Shown: piece after piece, positions 49,867 to 55,705 of the stretch
Layout: each line of letters starts with the position of its first letter
Numbering within the stretch: the stretch's first letter is position 1
NCBI RefSeq assembly: GCF_002844595.1
Contig: NZ_PJNW01000009.1
Span: 1 to 64,000, forward strand
DNA length: 64,000 nucleotides
Direction: 5' to 3'
From: Pleomorphomonas diazotrophica
GTDB lineage: Bacteria > Pseudomonadota > Alphaproteobacteria > Rhizobiales > Pleomorphomonadaceae
Program-made: the position numbers and the translations under genes
The notes under the pieces: generated by a model
The model's input: the letters and a program-made list of their open reading frames with translations, nothing else
What the model was told of the DNA's origin: nothing
Database searches by the model: none

Positions 49867-50319
49867 TCATGATTTCGGATCGGCACCAGGAATCTCTTCC
49901 ATGATGGTGTCGGCGAACTTGCGCATCAGCCGCACGAGGTCGTCGAACTCTTCGCGTGTCCAGTTCCGGAGCGCCTCCCGGCCGATGCGCTCGCGCGCCG
50001 CGTCGAGCAGATCGGTTGTGGCCTTGCCTTTCTCCGTCACCACCGCCTCGTGGACCCGCCGGTCGGTGGCGCTGGGCTGCCGCATCACCAGACCGAGGCT
50101 TTCAAGCTTGGCCACCTGCCGGCTCACGGTGGTGTAGTCGCGGCCGGATCGCTCGGCGAGATCGACGACGCCGATCGGCCCGAAGCGCTCGATGCCGACC
50201 AATAGCGGAAACAGCGCCCGATCGAGTGGAATGCCGGCTTCGCTGATCAGCGCGTCGTCGCGCTGCGGCCGGTTCATGACGCCGATGATGTCGAGCAGGG
50301 CGACATGCAACTGGCGCAT
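49867..50319 (-). CDS. MarR-family transcriptional regulator
   Basis: 150 residues from ATG 50319; further in-frame starts exist upstream but lie in the promoter region. IGVVDLAERSGRDYTTVSRQVAKLESLGLV is the winged helix (recognition helix in DYTTVSRQVAKL) followed by the wing RQPSATDRRVHEAVVT. It is divergent from a quinone oxidoreductase gene, the usual arrangement for a redox or phenolic-responsive MarR. It has no cysteine, so OhrR-type oxidation sensing is unlikely. A short stem TGGGTT/AACCCA at 49850-49866 abuts its stop and may be a terminator. Confidence 0.88.
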   Translation of the reverse strand: MRQLHVALLDIIGVMNRPQRDDALISEAGIPLDRALFPLLVGIERFGPIGVVDLAERSGRDYTTVSRQVAKLESLGLVMRQPSATDRRVHEAVVTEKGKATTDLLDAARERIGREALRNWTREEFDDLVRLMRKFADTIMEEIPGADPKS

Positions 50320-50353
50320 CTTTTCTGAATTAAGTGTATTTTGCACTCTTTTC

Positions 50354-50390
50354 TTGACCGCCTTCGCCGGATTGGATATATGCGCATTAT
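50354..50390 (+). promoter_or_regulatory. Promoter with overlapping palindromic operator
   Basis: TTGACC (50354-50359), 17-base spacer and TATATG (50377-50382) form a sigma-70 promoter. ATATGCGCATTAT at 50378-50390 is a near-perfect palindrome covering the -10 element, a likely MarR operator. Confidence 0.55.
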
Positions 50391-50422
50391 ACACATAACT
50401 GAAGGACGGAAGGAATACCGAC

Positions 50423-51367
50423 ATGAAGGCCGCCATCGTCCGAGCCCCTGGGGTCGCGCCCGTCTACGGTGACTTTGCCGAACCGCAGCCGACCGACGAC
50501 CTGATCCGGGTGACGGTCGTTGCCGCCGCGCTCAGCCACGTGACCCGCGCCCGTGCAACTGGGCGCCATTACAGCTCGTCGGGGGACTTTCCCTTCGTCC
50601 CCGGCATCGACGGCGTCGGCCTTGCTGACGATGGCCGCCAGGTCTACTTCGCCATGCCCGAGGCACCGCACGGCGCGCTGGCCGAGCAGACCCTGGTGCG
50701 GGCCGACCGCTGCATCGACCTGCCCGACGGCCTCGACGCCACGATGGCCGCGGCGATCGCCAACCCCGGCATGTCGTCCTGGGCGGCGCTGACCGAACGG
50801 GCCAAGTTGAAGCCGGGCGAGACGGTGCTGGTCAACGGCGCGACCGGCGCCTCCGGACGCCTGGCGGTCAAGATCGCGCGGCACCTCGGCGCGGCAAGGG
50901 TGATCGCCACCGGTCGCAACGCCGCGGTGCTCGCCGAGGTCGGGGCTGACGAGGCCATTGTTCTGGAAGGCGAAGCCGACGCACTGGAGCGCCGCTTCAT
51001 GGCGGTCTTTGCCGAGGGCGTCGACGTGGTGGTCGACTATCTCTGGGGCATGAGCGCCGAGCGACTGCTGATCGCCGCCGCCAAGGCCGGCCGCGACGCT
51101 GCGCCGCTCCGCTTCGTCGAAGTGGGATCGATGAGCGGCGAGACCATCACCCTGCCGAGCGCCGTGTTGCGCGCTTCGGCCATCGAGCTGATGGGCAGCG
51201 GCGTCGGCTCGGTCCCCCTCGACCGGATGATGGTGGCCGCGAGAGACCTTCTGCGCGAGGCGGTGCCGGTCGGGTTGACCATTCCCGTCCGGCAGGTGCC
51301 GCTGTGGGTCGTCGAGCAGGCTTGGGCTGCACCGGATGACGGCCGCCGTGTCGTCTTCACCCCCTGA
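50423..51367 (+). CDS. Zinc-independent quinone oxidoreductase-like MDR protein
   Basis: 314 residues. It belongs to the medium-chain reductase group: FVPGIDGVGLADDGR in the GroES-like domain and the nucleotide loop VNGATGASGRLAVKIARHLGA (GxxGxxG). The catalytic zinc ligands of alcohol dehydrogenases are absent. Probably an NAD(P)H-dependent quinone or enone reductase under the divergent MarR regulator. Its end overlaps the convergent permease gene by 11 bases. Confidence 0.83.
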   Translation: MKAAIVRAPGVAPVYGDFAEPQPTDDLIRVTVVAAALSHVTRARATGRHYSSSGDFPFVPGIDGVGLADDGRQVYFAMPEAPHGALAEQTLVRADRCIDLPDGLDATMAAAIANPGMSSWAALTERAKLKPGETVLVNGATGASGRLAVKIARHLGAARVIATGRNAAVLAEVGADEAIVLEGEADALERRFMAVFAEGVDVVVDYLWGMSAERLLIAAAKAGRDAAPLRFVEVGSMSGETITLPSAVLRASAIELMGSGVGSVPLDRMMVAARDLLREAVPVGLTIPVRQVPLWVVEQAWAAPDDGRRVVFTP

Positions 51368-52607
51368 GCGCTTCCACCGGCGACTGGCGATAGGCGAGGG
51401 CGGCCGGCAGGGCCGCCATCAACGCCGCGATGGCGAGAAACGCTACCGCCAGCATGGCATCGGCGGACGTGAACTCCACCGACAGGCGCACGCCGCTTTG
51501 GGCGGTGAACAGCCCGGCGAGGACGCTCGCCGCGCCATAGCCCAGGCCGAAGCCTGCGCCGACACCGACTGCCACGAGGAGCAACAGCTCCAGCCAGACG
51601 ATGCCGAACACGGCGAGACGAGGCGCGCCGAAAGCTCTGAGAGCGCCGATCTGCTTTCGCCGCTGGGCGATATGAATGACGACGATCAGCATCAGGGCTG
51701 CGGCCACAAGCGCCTGTGCGCCGTAGGCGATATACATCAGCACGGCCCGCGCATCGCCCAGCGTCGCGTAGAGCCCGGTCAGCACCTCGGCCGGGAAGAC
51801 GGCGCGCGTTCCGTCCTCGGTGCGATAGGCTTGCCGCAGCGCATAGGCATCGGCGATGGTCTTTGGCTTCACCAACACGGCCGGCAGGCCGGGCACGTCG
51901 TGGTCGAAGCGCTCGTCGAGCGGCGCGTCGGCGTCGATATGGCCGTGGTCGTGGTGGTCCTCGCCAGCCTCGTCCTCATGCTCCTCGCCTTCGTGTTGCT
52001 CCTCACCGAGACCATGGACATGCCAGACCGCCTGGATGGGCACGAGGATGGCCCGGTCCCAGGCCGTGCCTGTCGGCTGAAGCTTGCCGACCACGTGATA
52101 GGCGCTGTCCGCATGCGTCTCGCCGCCTTCGCCGGCCGTGCCGTGCATCGGGTTCACTTCGGCGCCGATCGGAAGGTCGACGCCCGAGCCGACAACCGCC
52201 TCGCCCTCATGGGCGAACATCTCGCCCGCGATGAACCCGGTCGTGGTGCCTGAGATCAGCGCCGTGGTGGTACCGACGATCGGGTAACCCTTGAAGTTGT
52301 CGCCGAAGCCGATCGGTGCCGCCCAGGCGACGCGCGGGTCGGCGACGAGCTTGGTCAGCACCTCGCCGGGCATCAGCGGCAACGCCGCTGGCTGGAGGAA
52401 GACGGACGACAGAACGAGCTGTGTTTCCGAGCCCGGCGCACCGATGATGAGATCGAACTTGTCGGCAGCACGTGCCGAACCAAGGCGCAGCGCGCGCTCC
52501 TGCAACGTCACGGCGACACCGAGCGCAGTGGCGAGCGCCACCAGCAGCACGATCACCAGCGAAGCGGCCCAGAGGCGACGCAGATCGGCAAAGACGAAGC
52601 GGATCAC
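51357..52607 (-). CDS. FtsX/MacB-type ABC permease with histidine-rich periplasmic loop
   Basis: Start GTG 52607 with GGAGG upstream, coupled to the ATPase stop (GTGA); 416 residues. One N-terminal helix (AASLVIVLLVALATALGVAV), a large periplasmic domain (about 40-290) and three C-terminal helices ending YRQSPVEALRG, the FtsX/MacB topology. Residues about 196-236 carry nine histidines and many Asp/Glu (for example EDHHDHGHIDAD), a likely metal-binding insertion. With the ATPase and the DUF3299 protein it forms a three-gene unit probably acting on a divalent metal or a metalloprotein; direction of transport is unknown. Confidence 0.82.
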   Translation of the reverse strand: MIRFVFADLRRLWAASLVIVLLVALATALGVAVTLQERALRLGSARAADKFDLIIGAPGSETQLVLSSVFLQPAALPLMPGEVLTKLVADPRVAWAAPIGFGDNFKGYPIVGTTTALISGTTTGFIAGEMFAHEGEAVVGSGVDLPIGAEVNPMHGTAGEGGETHADSAYHVVGKLQPTGTAWDRAILVPIQAVWHVHGLGEEQHEGEEHEDEAGEDHHDHGHIDADAPLDERFDHDVPGLPAVLVKPKTIADAYALRQAYRTEDGTRAVFPAEVLTGLYATLGDARAVLMYIAYGAQALVAAALMLIVVIHIAQRRKQIGALRAFGAPRLAVFGIVWLELLLLVAVGVGAGFGLGYGAASVLAGLFTAQSGVRLSVEFTSADAMLAVAFLAIAALMAALPAALAYRQSPVEALRG

Positions 52608-53290
52608 GGCGAAACCTCCTCGGCGGTATCGGCGACGACCTGACCGGTGGCGAGGCGGATGCGCCGGTCGAGCCGCTCGGTCAGCCGCTCGTCGTGGCTG
52701 ATGACGATCAGCGTGGCGCCTTCCTGGTCGGCGAGTTCGATGAGCAGTCGGCCGACTTCGGCGCCGGCTTCCGCGTCGAGGCTGGCGGTGGGTTCGTCGG
52801 CGATGATCACGCCGGGTCGGCGCAAGAGGGCGCGCGCCACCGCGACACGCTGCATCTCGCCGCGCGACATGGTTTCGACCGGTTGGCTGGGCCGCGTCAG
52901 GCCGACGCGGGCAAGAAGCTCGTGGGCGCGGGCCTTGACCTCCGCCGTGACGGCGCGGGCGAGCCGGGCCGGCAGCAGTACGTTGTCGATGGCGGCGAGA
53001 CCGGGAAACAGGTGAAACTCCTGCATGACCAGGCCGACGTTCGCGGCGCGCCAGCGGTCGCGACGGCTTTCCGACAGTGTGGTGATGTCGGTGTCGCGCC
53101 AACGGATCGCGCCGCTGTCCGGCCGCTCAAGGCCCGAGACGAGGTTGACGAAGGTGCTCTTGCCCGAACCGGATGCACCGGTGACGGCAAGCCGGCCGCC
53201 GGCCGGAATTGCCAGCTCATCGATGGAGAGCACCGGCTGGGCGAGGCCTGGGAAGGAGATGGAGACACCCGAAAGGGCAAGCGGCAGCAT
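52604..53290 (-). CDS. ABC transporter ATPase (LolD/MacB-like)
   Basis: 228 residues. Walker A GASGSGKST, Q loop in VGLVMQEFHLFPGL, Walker B VIIADEPTASLD, and the H loop VISHDERL are intact. The signature is MSRGEMQR instead of LSGGQ, a variant seen in this subfamily. It is translationally coupled to the FtsX-type permease and lies three bases after the DUF3299 gene. It should drive a mechanotransmission-type transporter rather than a classic importer. Confidence 0.87.
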   Translation of the reverse strand: MLPLALSGVSISFPGLAQPVLSIDELAIPAGGRLAVTGASGSGKSTFVNLVSGLERPDSGAIRWRDTDITTLSESRRDRWRAANVGLVMQEFHLFPGLAAIDNVLLPARLARAVTAEVKARAHELLARVGLTRPSQPVETMSRGEMQRVAVARALLRRPGVIIADEPTASLDAEAGAEVGRLLIELADQEGATLIVISHDERLTERLDRRIRLATGQVVADTAEEVSP

Positions 53291-53293
53291 GGC

Positions 53294-53743
53294 TCACACT
53301 GTCTCGAAGGAGGAGTGGACAAGGCGCAGAAGGCTGACGAAGCCGGTCTCGGGATCGGTCCAGGAGCCGACCTCCAGCATGCCAGTCACCTCGATCAGCC
53401 TGGATGGCGGCACGAAAGTGGTCTTCTCGTCGATGTAGACGACCACGATGTTGCTCGGCCAGTCGGCGTCCGAGGAACAGAAGGGGCAGAGCGCCATCGG
53501 GATTTCGGTCAGCACGAAGAACGTCGCTTCTGCCTTGAGCGGCGGCGCCATGAAACCCCGCATCGACACCGTCTTGCCGTCGAGCGCCTTCACCTTGTCG
53601 GAAAAGGCGAGGCCGAGCACGCTGACCTTGCCGTAGAGCTCGTCGAGGGTCAGCCTATCGCCCGCCTCGGCGGCACCGACACACGAGAGGGCAGCGAGCC
53701 CGGCGAGGAAGGTCCGGCGACTGACCGCCGCTATCTGCGCCAT
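53294..53743 (-). CDS. Tat-exported DUF3299 protein
   Basis: 149 residues from ATG 53743 with GGAG 6 bases upstream. The N-terminus has the twin-arginine signal SRRTFLAGLAALSCVGAAEA. The mature part resembles DUF3299: VSMRGFMAPPLKAEATFFVL, the CxxC pair in LCPFCSSDADWP, and a C-terminal OB-like strand set (LIEVTGMLEVGSW). CxxC and export suggest a metal or thiol-redox role. Such proteins occur beside FtsX-type ABC genes in zinc-responsive operons (the zrg operon of Vibrio is the case I recall), but the DUF2796 partner is missing here. Confidence 0.72.
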   Translation of the reverse strand: MAQIAAVSRRTFLAGLAALSCVGAAEAGDRLTLDELYGKVSVLGLAFSDKVKALDGKTVSMRGFMAPPLKAEATFFVLTEIPMALCPFCSSDADWPSNIVVVYIDEKTTFVPPSRLIEVTGMLEVGSWTDPETGFVSLLRLVHSSFETV

Positions 53744-53761: not shown

Positions 53762-53801
53762 AAAAACTGCGGGCCGGACGGCCGTCGACCGCCCGGCCCG
53801 C
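53762..53801 (-). terminator. Intrinsic terminator of phoA
   Basis: GCGGGCCGG (53769-53777) and CCGGCCCGC (53793-53801) pair; on the minus strand the stem is followed by AGTTTTTG. It ends 18 bases before the DUF3299 start. Confidence 0.8.
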
Positions 53802-53818: not shown

Positions 53819-55561
53819 TTACTGCTTCACGCCGAGGGCGAGCGTGTCGGCGAGCACCTTGTAGACGTCGCTTTCTTCCATGTAGCCCTTGAACTCGTCG
53901 GCGCCGGGGCCGGCGGCCTGCAGCACGACGTCGTCAACGGTGTGGGTGCCGGTCGACTCGTCCTTCGGCAGGTTACCTTCGACGAAGATGGCGCCCGGAA
54001 CATCCTTGTACTTGTCGTTGGCGACATACTCGCCCTTCTCGTTCTTCACCGCCGGCTCGAACGGCCCGTCGAGCTTCGGGTTGAAGGTCTCGTAGTGGTC
54101 CGGGTAGTTCGAGACGAACATGGCAAGGCGACGGCCGGCGTCGATCTTGTCGGGGTAGCCGTCCTTGTTCTCGTCCGTATAGGTCGGGAAGCCGGCGTTG
54201 GAACCGACCTGGAACTTCTCGCGACCTTCCTTGCCGATGGTGTCGTCGATGATACCGACGATCGACACGCCGTGGGTATGGTCGCCGGTGACGACGATCA
54301 GCGTGTCGGGATTCTTGGCCTGGAACTCGCGGGCCAGCGCAACCGTCTGGTCGAACTCGATGGTGTCGAACACGGCGCGCTCCATGTCGAGCGGATGGCT
54401 GGCCTTGTCGATGCAGGAGGCCTCGACCATCAGGAAGAAGCCCTCGGGATTCTTGGAGAGGTTGTCGAGGGCGACCTTGGTCATCTCGACCAGACCCGGC
54501 TGATTCGGGAACTTCTCGACGCTGCCCTTCTTGAGCTGCATGCGATCGAGGGCATAGTCCATGTTGCCGGTGTGGAACAGGCCGAGCAGCTTGTCCGAGC
54601 CGGCAGCCGTGGCAAGTTCGGCCTTGTCGGTGGCGAGCTTGTAGCCGGCCTCCTGGAACAGCTTGATATAGTCCTTGTCGTCCTTGCGCTTGGAGCCCGG
54701 CACGTCCTTCGACAGGAAGTAGGCCGAGCCGCCGCCCAGCACCACTTCCGGCTTGACGTCGTAGAGCATGCCGACGATGTCGGCCTTGTCGTCGCGCTTG
54801 CGGGTATGGGCGACCACCGCGGCAGGGGTGGCGTCTTCGACTTCCGACGTCACCACGAGGCCGATCGACTTCTTGGTGGTGCGGCGCAGCGCTTCGGCGA
54901 TGGTCTCCACCCGCGGATCGTCCTGCGTCGGCGGCGTGCGGTCGGCGTAGACGCCGAGGGCGTTGATCGCCGTCTTGTGGCCGGTCATGTAGGCCGACAT
55001 GGTGTTGGCCGAGTCGGTGTTGATGGCGTTGGTGGCCGAAGTGCCGATGAAGGCCATGTGGTCGAGGTCGTCCATGGCGAGGCGGCCGTTGGCCTTGCCC
55101 TCGGTCATGCCCTTGGCCATCAGGCGGGCGGCGGTGCGATGGGCGACGGAGAGGCCGTCGCCGAGCAGGAAGATGATGTTCTTGGCCTTGGGGGCCTCGG
55201 GCGTGGCGTAGACGTCCCAGGTGACCGACTTCTTCTCGTCGCCCGCCGAGACTTCCACCGTGTAGGCGCCGGCCTTGTCGATCTTCACGCCGCGCAGCAG
55301 CACGGCCGAACCGAGGGCAGCGTCGTCCTTGCCCTTCTCGGAGGCGATGAACTCCACGTCGCCGCCGAGCGCCGCCTTGTAGTCGGCGCCGTTGACGGCG
55401 ATCTTGACGTCCTCGGCCTTCACCGAGCCGTCGAACTCGACCTTGAAGTCAAAGGGAGAGCCGGCAAGGATGGTCGCCCGGTCGAGCGGAAAGACGGTGG
55501 CCGCACCGGCCGTGCCGATCAGAGCGGTACTGGCGGCGAGCGCCAGAAGAAGAGTGTGCAT
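53819..55561 (-). CDS. phoA: Alkaline phosphatase
   Basis: 580 residues from ATG 55561 with AAGGGG upstream. A signal peptide (residues 1-20) is followed by an extra Ig-like domain of about 100 residues (FPLDRATILAGSPFDFKVEF), which makes it longer than E. coli PhoA (471). The catalytic core has NIIFLLGDGLS, the nucleophile Ser in NTDSANTMSAYMTG, FFLMVEASCIDKASHPLD, and VVTGDHTHG. It is a periplasmic Zn/Mg phosphomonoesterase. Three Pho-box-like repeats lie upstream. Confidence 0.93.
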   Translation of the reverse strand: MHTLLLALAASTALIGTAGAATVFPLDRATILAGSPFDFKVEFDGSVKAEDVKIAVNGADYKAALGGDVEFIASEKGKDDAALGSAVLLRGVKIDKAGAYTVEVSAGDEKKSVTWDVYATPEAPKAKNIIFLLGDGLSVAHRTAARLMAKGMTEGKANGRLAMDDLDHMAFIGTSATNAINTDSANTMSAYMTGHKTAINALGVYADRTPPTQDDPRVETIAEALRRTTKKSIGLVVTSEVEDATPAAVVAHTRKRDDKADIVGMLYDVKPEVVLGGGSAYFLSKDVPGSKRKDDKDYIKLFQEAGYKLATDKAELATAAGSDKLLGLFHTGNMDYALDRMQLKKGSVEKFPNQPGLVEMTKVALDNLSKNPEGFFLMVEASCIDKASHPLDMERAVFDTIEFDQTVALAREFQAKNPDTLIVVTGDHTHGVSIVGIIDDTIGKEGREKFQVGSNAGFPTYTDENKDGYPDKIDAGRRLAMFVSNYPDHYETFNPKLDGPFEPAVKNEKGEYVANDKYKDVPGAIFVEGNLPKDESTGTHTVDDVVLQAAGPGADEFKGYMEESDVYKVLADTLALGVKQ

Positions 55562-55623: not shown

Positions 55624-55652
55624 ATGAAGCAAACATGACGGCCAGATGAATG
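55624..55652 (-). promoter_or_regulatory. Triple Pho-box-like direct repeats upstream of phoA
   Basis: On the minus strand three 7-mers with 11-base period: CATTCAT, CCGTCAT, GCTTCAT, separated by CTGG and GTTT. This fits PhoB sites (CTGTCAT, 11-base spacing). The last lies 63 bases before the phoA start. Confidence 0.65.
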
Positions 55653-55705
55653 CTGCGTGAACGTAAATACTTGATAAGTTTGGAAAAGTTATAAGGTACT
55701 GAGTG

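What the first reader, a model, noticed from the sequence alone, without database searches (positions are those of the whole stretch)
51357..53743. Three-gene transport unit: Tat-exported DUF3299 protein, ATPase, FtsX-type permease with His-rich loop
The permease carries nine histidines and many acidic residues within residues about 196-236 of its periplasmic domain, and the DUF3299 protein has CxxC and a twin-arginine signal. Together with a MacB/LolD-like ATPase this looks like a poorly described metal-linked ABC machine. The zrg zinc operon of Vibrio is the nearest thing I recall, but the DUF2796 protein is absent.
Basis: partly seen in the sequence, partly recalled or inferred. Interest (0 to 1): 0.6.

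Follow-up and report, generated by a model that had tools for sequence, protein, structure and literature searches.

The report
Phosphatase operon with zinc-linked ABC machine
The three genes are the tail of a widely conserved four-gene unit that starts with an alkaline phosphatase of the zinc-dependent kind and looks switched on by phosphate shortage, so this zinc-linked membrane machine may help supply the phosphatase with its metal.

Summary
The three genes are real and where stated (minus strand, 51357-53743); the nine histidines at residues 196-236 are exact. A PhoA-type alkaline phosphatase (53819-55561), with the PhoA metal-ligand motifs, lies directly upstream on the same strand in 130 of 133 loci, and in Deinococcus and Thermus plasmids. 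Four half-sites spaced exactly 11 bp precede it (55661-55624): a tandem Pho-box-like array, kept across relatives (71 of 94 upstreams against 26 of 1880 shuffles). So the unit looks phosphate-controlled; 7 of 94 upstreams also carry a Zur-like palindrome, but not the window's.

The ABC pair is homologous to the ZrgB/ZrgC (PA4065/PA4064) machine of zinc operons; three permease histidines (H155, H165, H198) are kept in both groups. [quoted passage not shown] The small protein misses the Pfam DUF3299 model, but the solved DUF3299 protein PA4066 ranks first for its predicted fold; it carries CPFC.

Best explanation: a zinc-handling machine recruited into the phosphate response to provision the exported phosphatase. 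Gene order, regulatory signal and homology are shown; zinc, direction of transfer and the role of ATP are inferred. New variant of a known kind.

The parts
55624..55661 (-). tandem Pho-box-like array: TTCAC, TTCAT, GTCAT, TTCAT, each 11 bp apart; first bases 100, 89, 78 and 67 bp before the phosphatase start codon
   Evidence: sequence; the only four-fold array of this kind on either strand of the 64-kb window, none in 200 plain shuffles of one strand; same register in seven genus relatives (where the printed positions are 12 bp too far upstream)
53819..55561 (-). PhoA-type alkaline phosphatase, 580 aa, Sec-type leader by eye (MHTLLLALAASTALIGTAGAA), one cysteine
   Evidence: PF00245 4.8e-73 (run on 579 residues without the first Met); metal-ligand motifs line up with solved bacterial phosphatases; length and cysteine count
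53762..53801 (-). G+C-rich hairpin followed by TTTTT between the phosphatase and the small protein; possible terminator or attenuator
53294..53743 (-). DUF3299-like, OB-fold protein with twin-arginine-type leader
53477..53488 (-). CPFC motif (residues 86-89) of the small protein; in 52 of 53 family members, CPFH in L063
52604..53290 (-). ATPase of the LolD/MacB class, homologous to the ATPase of ZrgA/DUF3299 operons
51357..52607 (-). FtsX-type permease, homologous to the permease of ZrgA/DUF3299 operons (ZrgB/PA4065 type); model: one long N-terminal helix, a large domain, three long C-terminal helices
51900..52022 (-). His/acid-rich loop, residues 196-236 (nine His); clade-specific expansion
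   Evidence: low model confidence at residues 201-220 (pLDDT about 60)
52143..52145 (-). conserved H155 of the permease
   Evidence: 69 of 69 aligned permeases
52113..52115 (-). conserved H165 of the permease
   Evidence: 67 of 69 aligned permeases
52014..52016 (-). conserved H198 of the permease, inside the first turn of the His-rich stretch
   Evidence: 69 of 69 aligned permeases

Best explanation
A phosphate-starvation operon: PhoB (inferred) turns on an exported alkaline phosphatase of the two-zinc PhoA family together with a ZrgB/ZrgC-type ABC machine and a DUF3299-like CPFC protein. The machine handles zinc at the periplasmic face of the membrane and so provisions the phosphatase, which, if exported unfolded by Sec as its leader suggests, must get its zinc outside the cytoplasm. 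Proposed steps: the CPFC protein and the permease's histidines (H155, H165, H198; in this clade also the His-rich loop as a local store) bind zinc; ATP use by the LolD/MacB-like pair drives a shape change in the periplasmic domain that passes zinc on to newly exported phosphatase. Shown here: the four-gene unit, the Pho-box-like array, homology to the zinc-operon machine, the conserved histidines and CPFC, and the phosphatase's metal-ligand motifs. Inferred: that the metal is zinc, that the phosphatase receives it, and how ATP is used.
For: (1) Phosphatase directly upstream, same strand: 50 of 53 loci, 130 of 133 after adding 80 named genomes, with 436-853 bp from its stop to the small protein's stop in all 130. 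At least nine of the 80 repeat contigs already held (equal contig lengths). Same order in 8 of 11 plasmid records opened: Paracoccus, Azospirillum, Ensifer, Qingshengfaniella, D. radiodurans MP1, Thermus, Roseomonas, Cereibacter (small protein confirmed by profile). (2) Same 397 genomes: 81 of 82 with the small protein also have this phosphatase family, which occurs in 114; genus member G010 lacks both. (3) Pho-box score 11 or more of 14: 71 of 94 against 26 of 1880. (4) Zinc context of the machine: ZrgA in 14 of 20 true DUF3299 loci (three checked by Pfam), a P. aeruginosa plasmid, ZnuA at L256 and L259, MerC plus a TonB receptor at L261; the V. cholerae and V. parahaemolyticus operons are zinc-regulated (passages). 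(5) Link case L225: phosphatase-ZrgA-ATPase-permease-DUF3299 in one run. (6) Two of the three loci without PhoA have another hydrolase with an export leader beside the machine: a PF01663 phosphodiesterase (L063), an M20/M28 peptidase (L073). (7) Zur-like palindromes before the phosphatase in 7 of 94 against 3 of 4700 shuffles. (8) H155/H165/H198 in 69, 67 and 69 of 69 permeases.
Against: No metal was measured. The phosphatase family does not need the machine: 33 of 114 genomes with it lack the small protein, and of 20 phosphatase loci without the small protein that were read (19 from those genomes, one a second copy in G212), 19 show no permease of this family over 60 bits. L072 has the trio with no hydrolase seen upstream (by eye); L250 and L251 have the small protein with neither ABC pair nor phosphatase. 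None of the 20 true DUF3299 loci has the phosphatase. No Zur-like site in the window (best 9 of 12). In the distant clade only 10 of 22 upstreams reach Pho score 11. A terminator-like hairpin separates the phosphatase from the trio, so co-transcription is not proven. The His-rich loop and the twin-arginine leader are not universal. Whether the three histidines meet in space could not be measured (no coordinates readable).
Confidence: 0.5

Rival explanations
1. Zinc importer: the machine brings zinc into the cytoplasm, as proposed for ZrgABC, and is co-induced with the phosphatase because making much of a zinc enzyme drains the cell's zinc.
For: Homology to the ZrgBC type, whose operon supports growth at low zinc in V. 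cholerae (passages); some operons carry Zur-like sites.
Against: Permease model matches LolE, MacB and YbbP, a class not known for import (recalled); no ZrgA match in the genome; the genome already has two ZnuA-type binding proteins.
Confidence: 0.2
2. MacB-like exporter of a metal chelate or metallophore, as argued for PA4064/PA4065 (pyochelin-cobalt export).
For: Fold class; PA4065 mutant data in P. aeruginosa (passages). An HlyD-type adaptor gene of a neighbouring ABC set lies just before the phosphatase in Azospirillum, and a biotin/lipoyl-binding protein before a DUF3299-type machine in Ruegeria.
Against: No adaptor annotated within the four-gene unit in the eight records; does not explain the fixed phosphatase neighbour. 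Adaptors elsewhere in the genome were not searched.
Confidence: 0.1
3. Lol/YbbAP-like extraction machine that frees or folds the phosphatase (or lipids) at the inner membrane, with no metal role.
For: LolE, MacB and YbbP among the best structural matches; fixed linkage to one exported enzyme family.
Against: ZrgA, ZnuA, MerC and Zur-like contexts of the same machine, conserved histidines, CPFC.
Confidence: 0.12
4. Thiol-redox partner: the CPFC protein forms disulfides in the phosphatase.
For: CPFC; a redoxin gene inside the L073 unit; 20 of 130 relatives' phosphatases have four cysteines, so disulfides are possible there.
Against: The window phosphatase has one cysteine, and 105 of 130 have none or one, so no internal disulfide is possible; the small protein has an OB fold, not thioredoxin.
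Confidence: 0.03

Closest known systems
ZrgABCDE of Vibrio / PA4063-PA4066 of Pseudomonas aeruginosa (DUF2796-ATPase-permease-DUF3299)
   Same: Homologous permease and ATPase: the window-family profile finds 16 permeases of alphaproteobacterial DUF3299 loci at 1.5e-54 to 1.7e-65 and the one on a P. aeruginosa plasmid at 1.4e-59; the three histidines are kept in the 16; DUF3299 fold
   Different: No ZrgA; DUF3299 motif GACIHVPPPP replaced by CPFC; alkaline phosphatase in front; Pho-box-like array and no recognisable Zur site in the window
LolCDE / MacB / YbbAP (mechanotransmission ABC class)
   Same: Fold and topology, LolD-like ATPase
   Different: Single permease gene split from the ATPase, conserved histidines, DUF3299-like partner, phosphatase neighbour
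E. coli PhoA (PF00245)
   Same: Family and metal-ligand motifs; Pho-type control (recalled for E. coli)
   Different: About 120 extra N-terminal residues before the domain, one cysteine, downstream ABC machine

Membership tests
Zrg (ZrgABCDE / PA4063-4066) zinc system | ZrgA (PF10986, DUF2796) periplasmic zinc protein | tested here: not met
   0 matches in the window's genome while 57 of 397 order genomes match
Zrg (ZrgABCDE / PA4063-4066) zinc system | ZrgB-type permease and ZrgC-type ATPase, split genes | tested here: met
Zrg (ZrgABCDE / PA4063-4066) zinc system | Zur-controlled expression | tested here: inconclusive
   No Zur-like palindrome in the window; 7 of 94 relatives' upstreams have one. 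Consensus recalled; control: 6 of 14 ZrgA upstreams reach 10 of 12 for TGTTATNNNATAACA against 2 of 280 shuffles
DUF3299 (PF11736) | Match to the Pfam model | tested here: not met
DUF3299 (PF11736) | Shared fold and remote homology | tested here: met
   4hsp (PA4066) is Foldseek rank 1, E 8.6e-6, TM 0.57, rmsd 5.6; VIA Z 9.4, rmsd 3.4, 113 aligned, a tie with other OB folds at up to 9.2 over 84-91 residues, so the fold alone shows an OB fold; homology rests on hhalign 74.9%, E 2.6e-5 and eight places hit by both models
PhoA alkaline phosphatase (PF00245) | Family model and zinc/magnesium ligand motifs | tested here: met
   ligand identities recalled; the C-terminal HT position rests on a weak second segment (0.3 bits)
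Pho regulon | Tandem 11-bp Pho-box repeats before the gene | tested here: met
   Before a PstS-like gene of this genome (below its family cut-off) the best score is 11 of 14, about what 1560 bp can give by chance, and the strict array test found none, so that check is inconclusive
Pho regulon | PhoB binding and induction at low phosphate | not testable with these tools
   needs experiment
MacAB-TolC exporter | MacA adaptor and TolC partner | tested here: inconclusive
   no adaptor annotated inside the unit in eight records; genome not searched

The most novel reading that the evidence does not exclude
An ATP-driven periplasmic metal insertase: an ABC machine of the Lol/MacB class that does not move its cargo across the membrane but loads zinc into a newly exported enzyme, fixed in operons with alkaline phosphatase (and in single cases next to other exported hydrolases), found in Pseudomonadota and Deinococcota. 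The ZrgBC/PA4064-4065 systems would then be members of the same insertase family.
Probability: 0.25. Interest if true: 0.85.

Novelty: new variant of a known kind. Interest (0 to 1): 0.62.

Why it matters
How periplasmic zinc enzymes get their metal is poorly understood (recalled), and whether the PA4063-4066/Zrg machine imports zinc or exports a chelate is argued both ways in print (passages). A natural version of the machine tied to one easily measured enzyme gives a direct assay (phosphatase activity and zinc content) for what the machine does, and would link phosphate and zinc nutrition in soil and root-associated bacteria and Deinococcus.

Tried and rejected
His-rich loop as the conserved core: rejected. 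DUF3299 by Pfam: not met, replaced by fold and profile evidence. Zur control of the window's unit: no site. A Zur-like site between phosphatase and small protein: none above shuffles. A profile search of solved-structure sequences with the small-protein family found nothing; the fold search did. Recurrent upstream 'clusters' 3, 7, 42 and 45 turned out to be other frames of the phosphatase gene, which is how it was noticed. Internal disulfides in the window's phosphatase: rejected (one cysteine); open for the 20 four-cysteine relatives. A strict Pho-box scan of the genome gave 7 sites against 2 in the reversed control and did not help; the PstS check was inconclusive. Geometry of H155/H165/H198: model coordinates are not readable here, so untested. 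Print: DUF3299 is in 4 held papers; ZrgA with alkaline phosphatase 0 papers; alkaline phosphatase with FtsX, Pho regulon, operon and permease 0; wider searches listed nothing whose title or abstract start describes this unit. Of those four only the listings were seen, two of them cut at 12 of 30 and 12 of 22 papers and one at 20 of 29; most subscription papers are not held.
Full report
WHAT IS THERE. The window comes from a Pleomorphomonas-like genome (Hyphomicrobiales; nearest named locus P. oryzae, 92% for the small protein). On the minus strand lie, in reading order: a Pho-box-like array (55661-55624), an alkaline phosphatase (55561-53819), a hairpin with a T run, the small protein (53743-53294), the ATPase (53290-52604) and the permease (52607-51357).

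CONSERVATION OF THE UNIT. The small protein was found in 82 of 397 genomes of the order, at 83 places. I read 52 of those places with flanks, plus the window; 30 were not read. All 52 have ATPase and permease beside it; the order differs in L063, and in L073 an extra gene lies between. The phosphatase is upstream on the same strand in 50 of these 53 loci. Adding 80 loci from named genomes (the best 80 of 569 relatives, so biased to the near clade) gives 130 of 133, all on the same strand with 436-853 bp from the phosphatase's stop to the small protein's stop. At least nine of the 80 repeat contigs already held (equal contig lengths). ATPase and permease are present in 132 of 133; L203 ends at a contig edge. 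Without phosphatase: L063, L072, L073. Of 60 plasmid records matched by the permease I opened 11: eight show the same four genes, in Paracoccus, Azospirillum, Ensifer, Qingshengfaniella, Roseomonas, Cereibacter and, outside the phylum, Deinococcus radiodurans MP1 and Thermus; three (P. aeruginosa, Catenovulum, Ruegeria) show DUF3299-type machines without it. Class and phylum searches gave 16 of 240 and 8 of 239 genomes with a match, window included, many of them weak. Of nine strong new places, five have the phosphatase adjacent, two lie on contigs too short to tell (L247, L249), and two (L250, L251) have neither phosphatase nor ABC genes. In L246 and L249 the ATPase is on the other strand.

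CO-OCCURRENCE. In the same 397 genomes the phosphatase family occurs in 114 (E up to 1e-20); 81 of the 82 genomes with the small protein are among them. Of 36 genomes whose phosphatase is at least 57% identical to the window's, 35 have the small protein; the exception G011 has a fragment on a fragmented assembly. The reverse does not hold: 33 of 114 phosphatase genomes lack the small protein. I read 20 phosphatase loci without it (19 from those genomes, one a second copy in G212): 19 show no permease of this family over 60 bits.

REGULATION. The Pho box is two 11-bp direct repeats; the E. coli core is CTGTCAT (review PMC4415409, passages). Of 94 upstreams left after removing near-copies, 71 score 11 or more of 14, against 26 of 1880 dinucleotide-type shuffles. 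The window itself scores 11 and has four half-sites spaced exactly 11 bp, in the same register as seven genus relatives; it is the only four-fold array in the 64 kb, and none arose in 200 plain shuffles of one strand. The distant clade is weaker (10 of 22 reach 11). A check before a PstS-like gene of this genome was inconclusive. Zur-like palindromes, tested with consensus forms that I recalled, reach 11 of 12 in 7 of 94 upstreams against 3 of 4700 shuffles; as a control 6 of 14 ZrgA upstreams reach 10 against 2 of 280 shuffles for the first form. The window has none.

THE MACHINE. I read 20 true DUF3299 loci in other Alphaproteobacteria. The window-family permease profile scores over 100 bits in 16 of them; a ZrgA-like cluster is in 14, three of which I checked by Pfam; none has the phosphatase. 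H155, H165 and H198 are kept in 69, 67 and 69 of 69 permeases, 16 of them from DUF3299 loci. The His-rich loop is expanded in the window's clade, and separately in L073. The permease model (pLDDT 90) matches LolE, MacB and YbbP.

THE SMALL PROTEIN. No Pfam family beyond a sub-threshold leader match. Its model (pLDDT 88) has 4hsp, the DUF3299 protein PA4066, as Foldseek rank 1 (8.6e-6, TM 0.57). VIA gives Z 9.4, rmsd 3.4 over 113 residues, but other OB folds reach 9.2, a tie. Profile comparison with 19 DUF3299 sequences gives 74.9%, E 2.6e-5, and eight places are hit by both the Pfam model and the family profile. CPFC is in 52 of 53 members, twin arginines in 49 of 53.

THE PHOSPHATASE. PF00245, 4.8e-73. 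Motifs around the PhoA metal ligands (GDG, TDSA, DATPA, VExxxIDKxxH, DHxH, and weakly HT) line up with solved bacterial phosphatases; which residues bind metal is recalled. It has a Sec-type leader by eye and one cysteine; of 130 relatives 105 have none or one, 20 have four.

CONTEXT SAYING ZINC. Machines of the DUF3299 type sit with ZrgA, with ZnuA (L256, L259), with MerC and a TonB receptor (L261) and about 100 bp from a carbonic anhydrase (L262). In L225 a phosphatase of the window's family is followed by ZrgA, ATPase, permease and DUF3299. Of the three loci lacking PhoA, L063 has a PF01663 phosphodiesterase and L073 an M20/M28 peptidase; both families are typically metal-dependent hydrolases (recalled). 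L072 shows neither.

WHAT IS IN PRINT. The zrg operon supports growth at low zinc in V. cholerae, zrgE single mutants had no effect, and the ZrgB periplasmic domain is noted as MacB-like (PMC9820375, abstract and passages). PA4064-4065 is argued to be an exporter of pyochelin-cobalt (PMC11481552, abstract and passages). The zrg operon is strongly induced by zinc lack in V. parahaemolyticus (PMC9817125, passages). I found no held paper on the phosphatase unit (listings only).

VERDICT. A real four-gene unit spread over two phyla, with a phosphate-control signal and the pedigree of a zinc-operon machine. That it provisions the phosphatase with zinc is the best reading (0.5); that it inserts the metal using ATP is the boldest reading not excluded (0.25).

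Noticed in passing
L062, L064-L068, L070, L071, L074-L078 (downstream of the permease); before the phosphatase in L216: A PCu(A)C-family protein (PF04314 confirmed for L064 and L066; others by similarity) follows the permease in much of the non-His-rich clade; it ends in a His-rich tail and the usual copper ligands look missing by eye.
   Followed up: partly
window 53762-53801 and the gap after the phosphatase in relatives: The stretch after the phosphatase stop folds strongly in most of the loci printed, with differing sequence and often no T run; no shuffled control was run. It may set phosphatase output above machine output.
   Followed up: partly
L256 1865-5225, L259 5543-9068: ZnuA (PF01297) directly before a MacB-type ATPase-permease-DUF3299 set: a zinc-binding protein paired with a non-ZnuB permease.
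   Followed up: partly
L073 2889-7460: Same machine with an M20/M28 peptidase upstream and a redoxin gene between the CPFC protein and the ATPase; its permease has its own His-rich loop (11 His).
   Followed up: partly
L261 2140-8215: DUF1826 - MerC - ATPase - permease - DUF3299 - TonB receptor run.
   Followed up: no
L262 2319-3083: Carbonic anhydrase (PF00484) about 100 bp before the ATPase of a DUF3299-type machine.
   Followed up: no
L250, L251: Small CPFC-family proteins with no ABC genes or phosphatase nearby.
   Followed up: no
window 49867-51367: MarR-family regulator gene beside a zinc-binding-dehydrogenase-like gene that runs head-on into the permease end.
   Followed up: no
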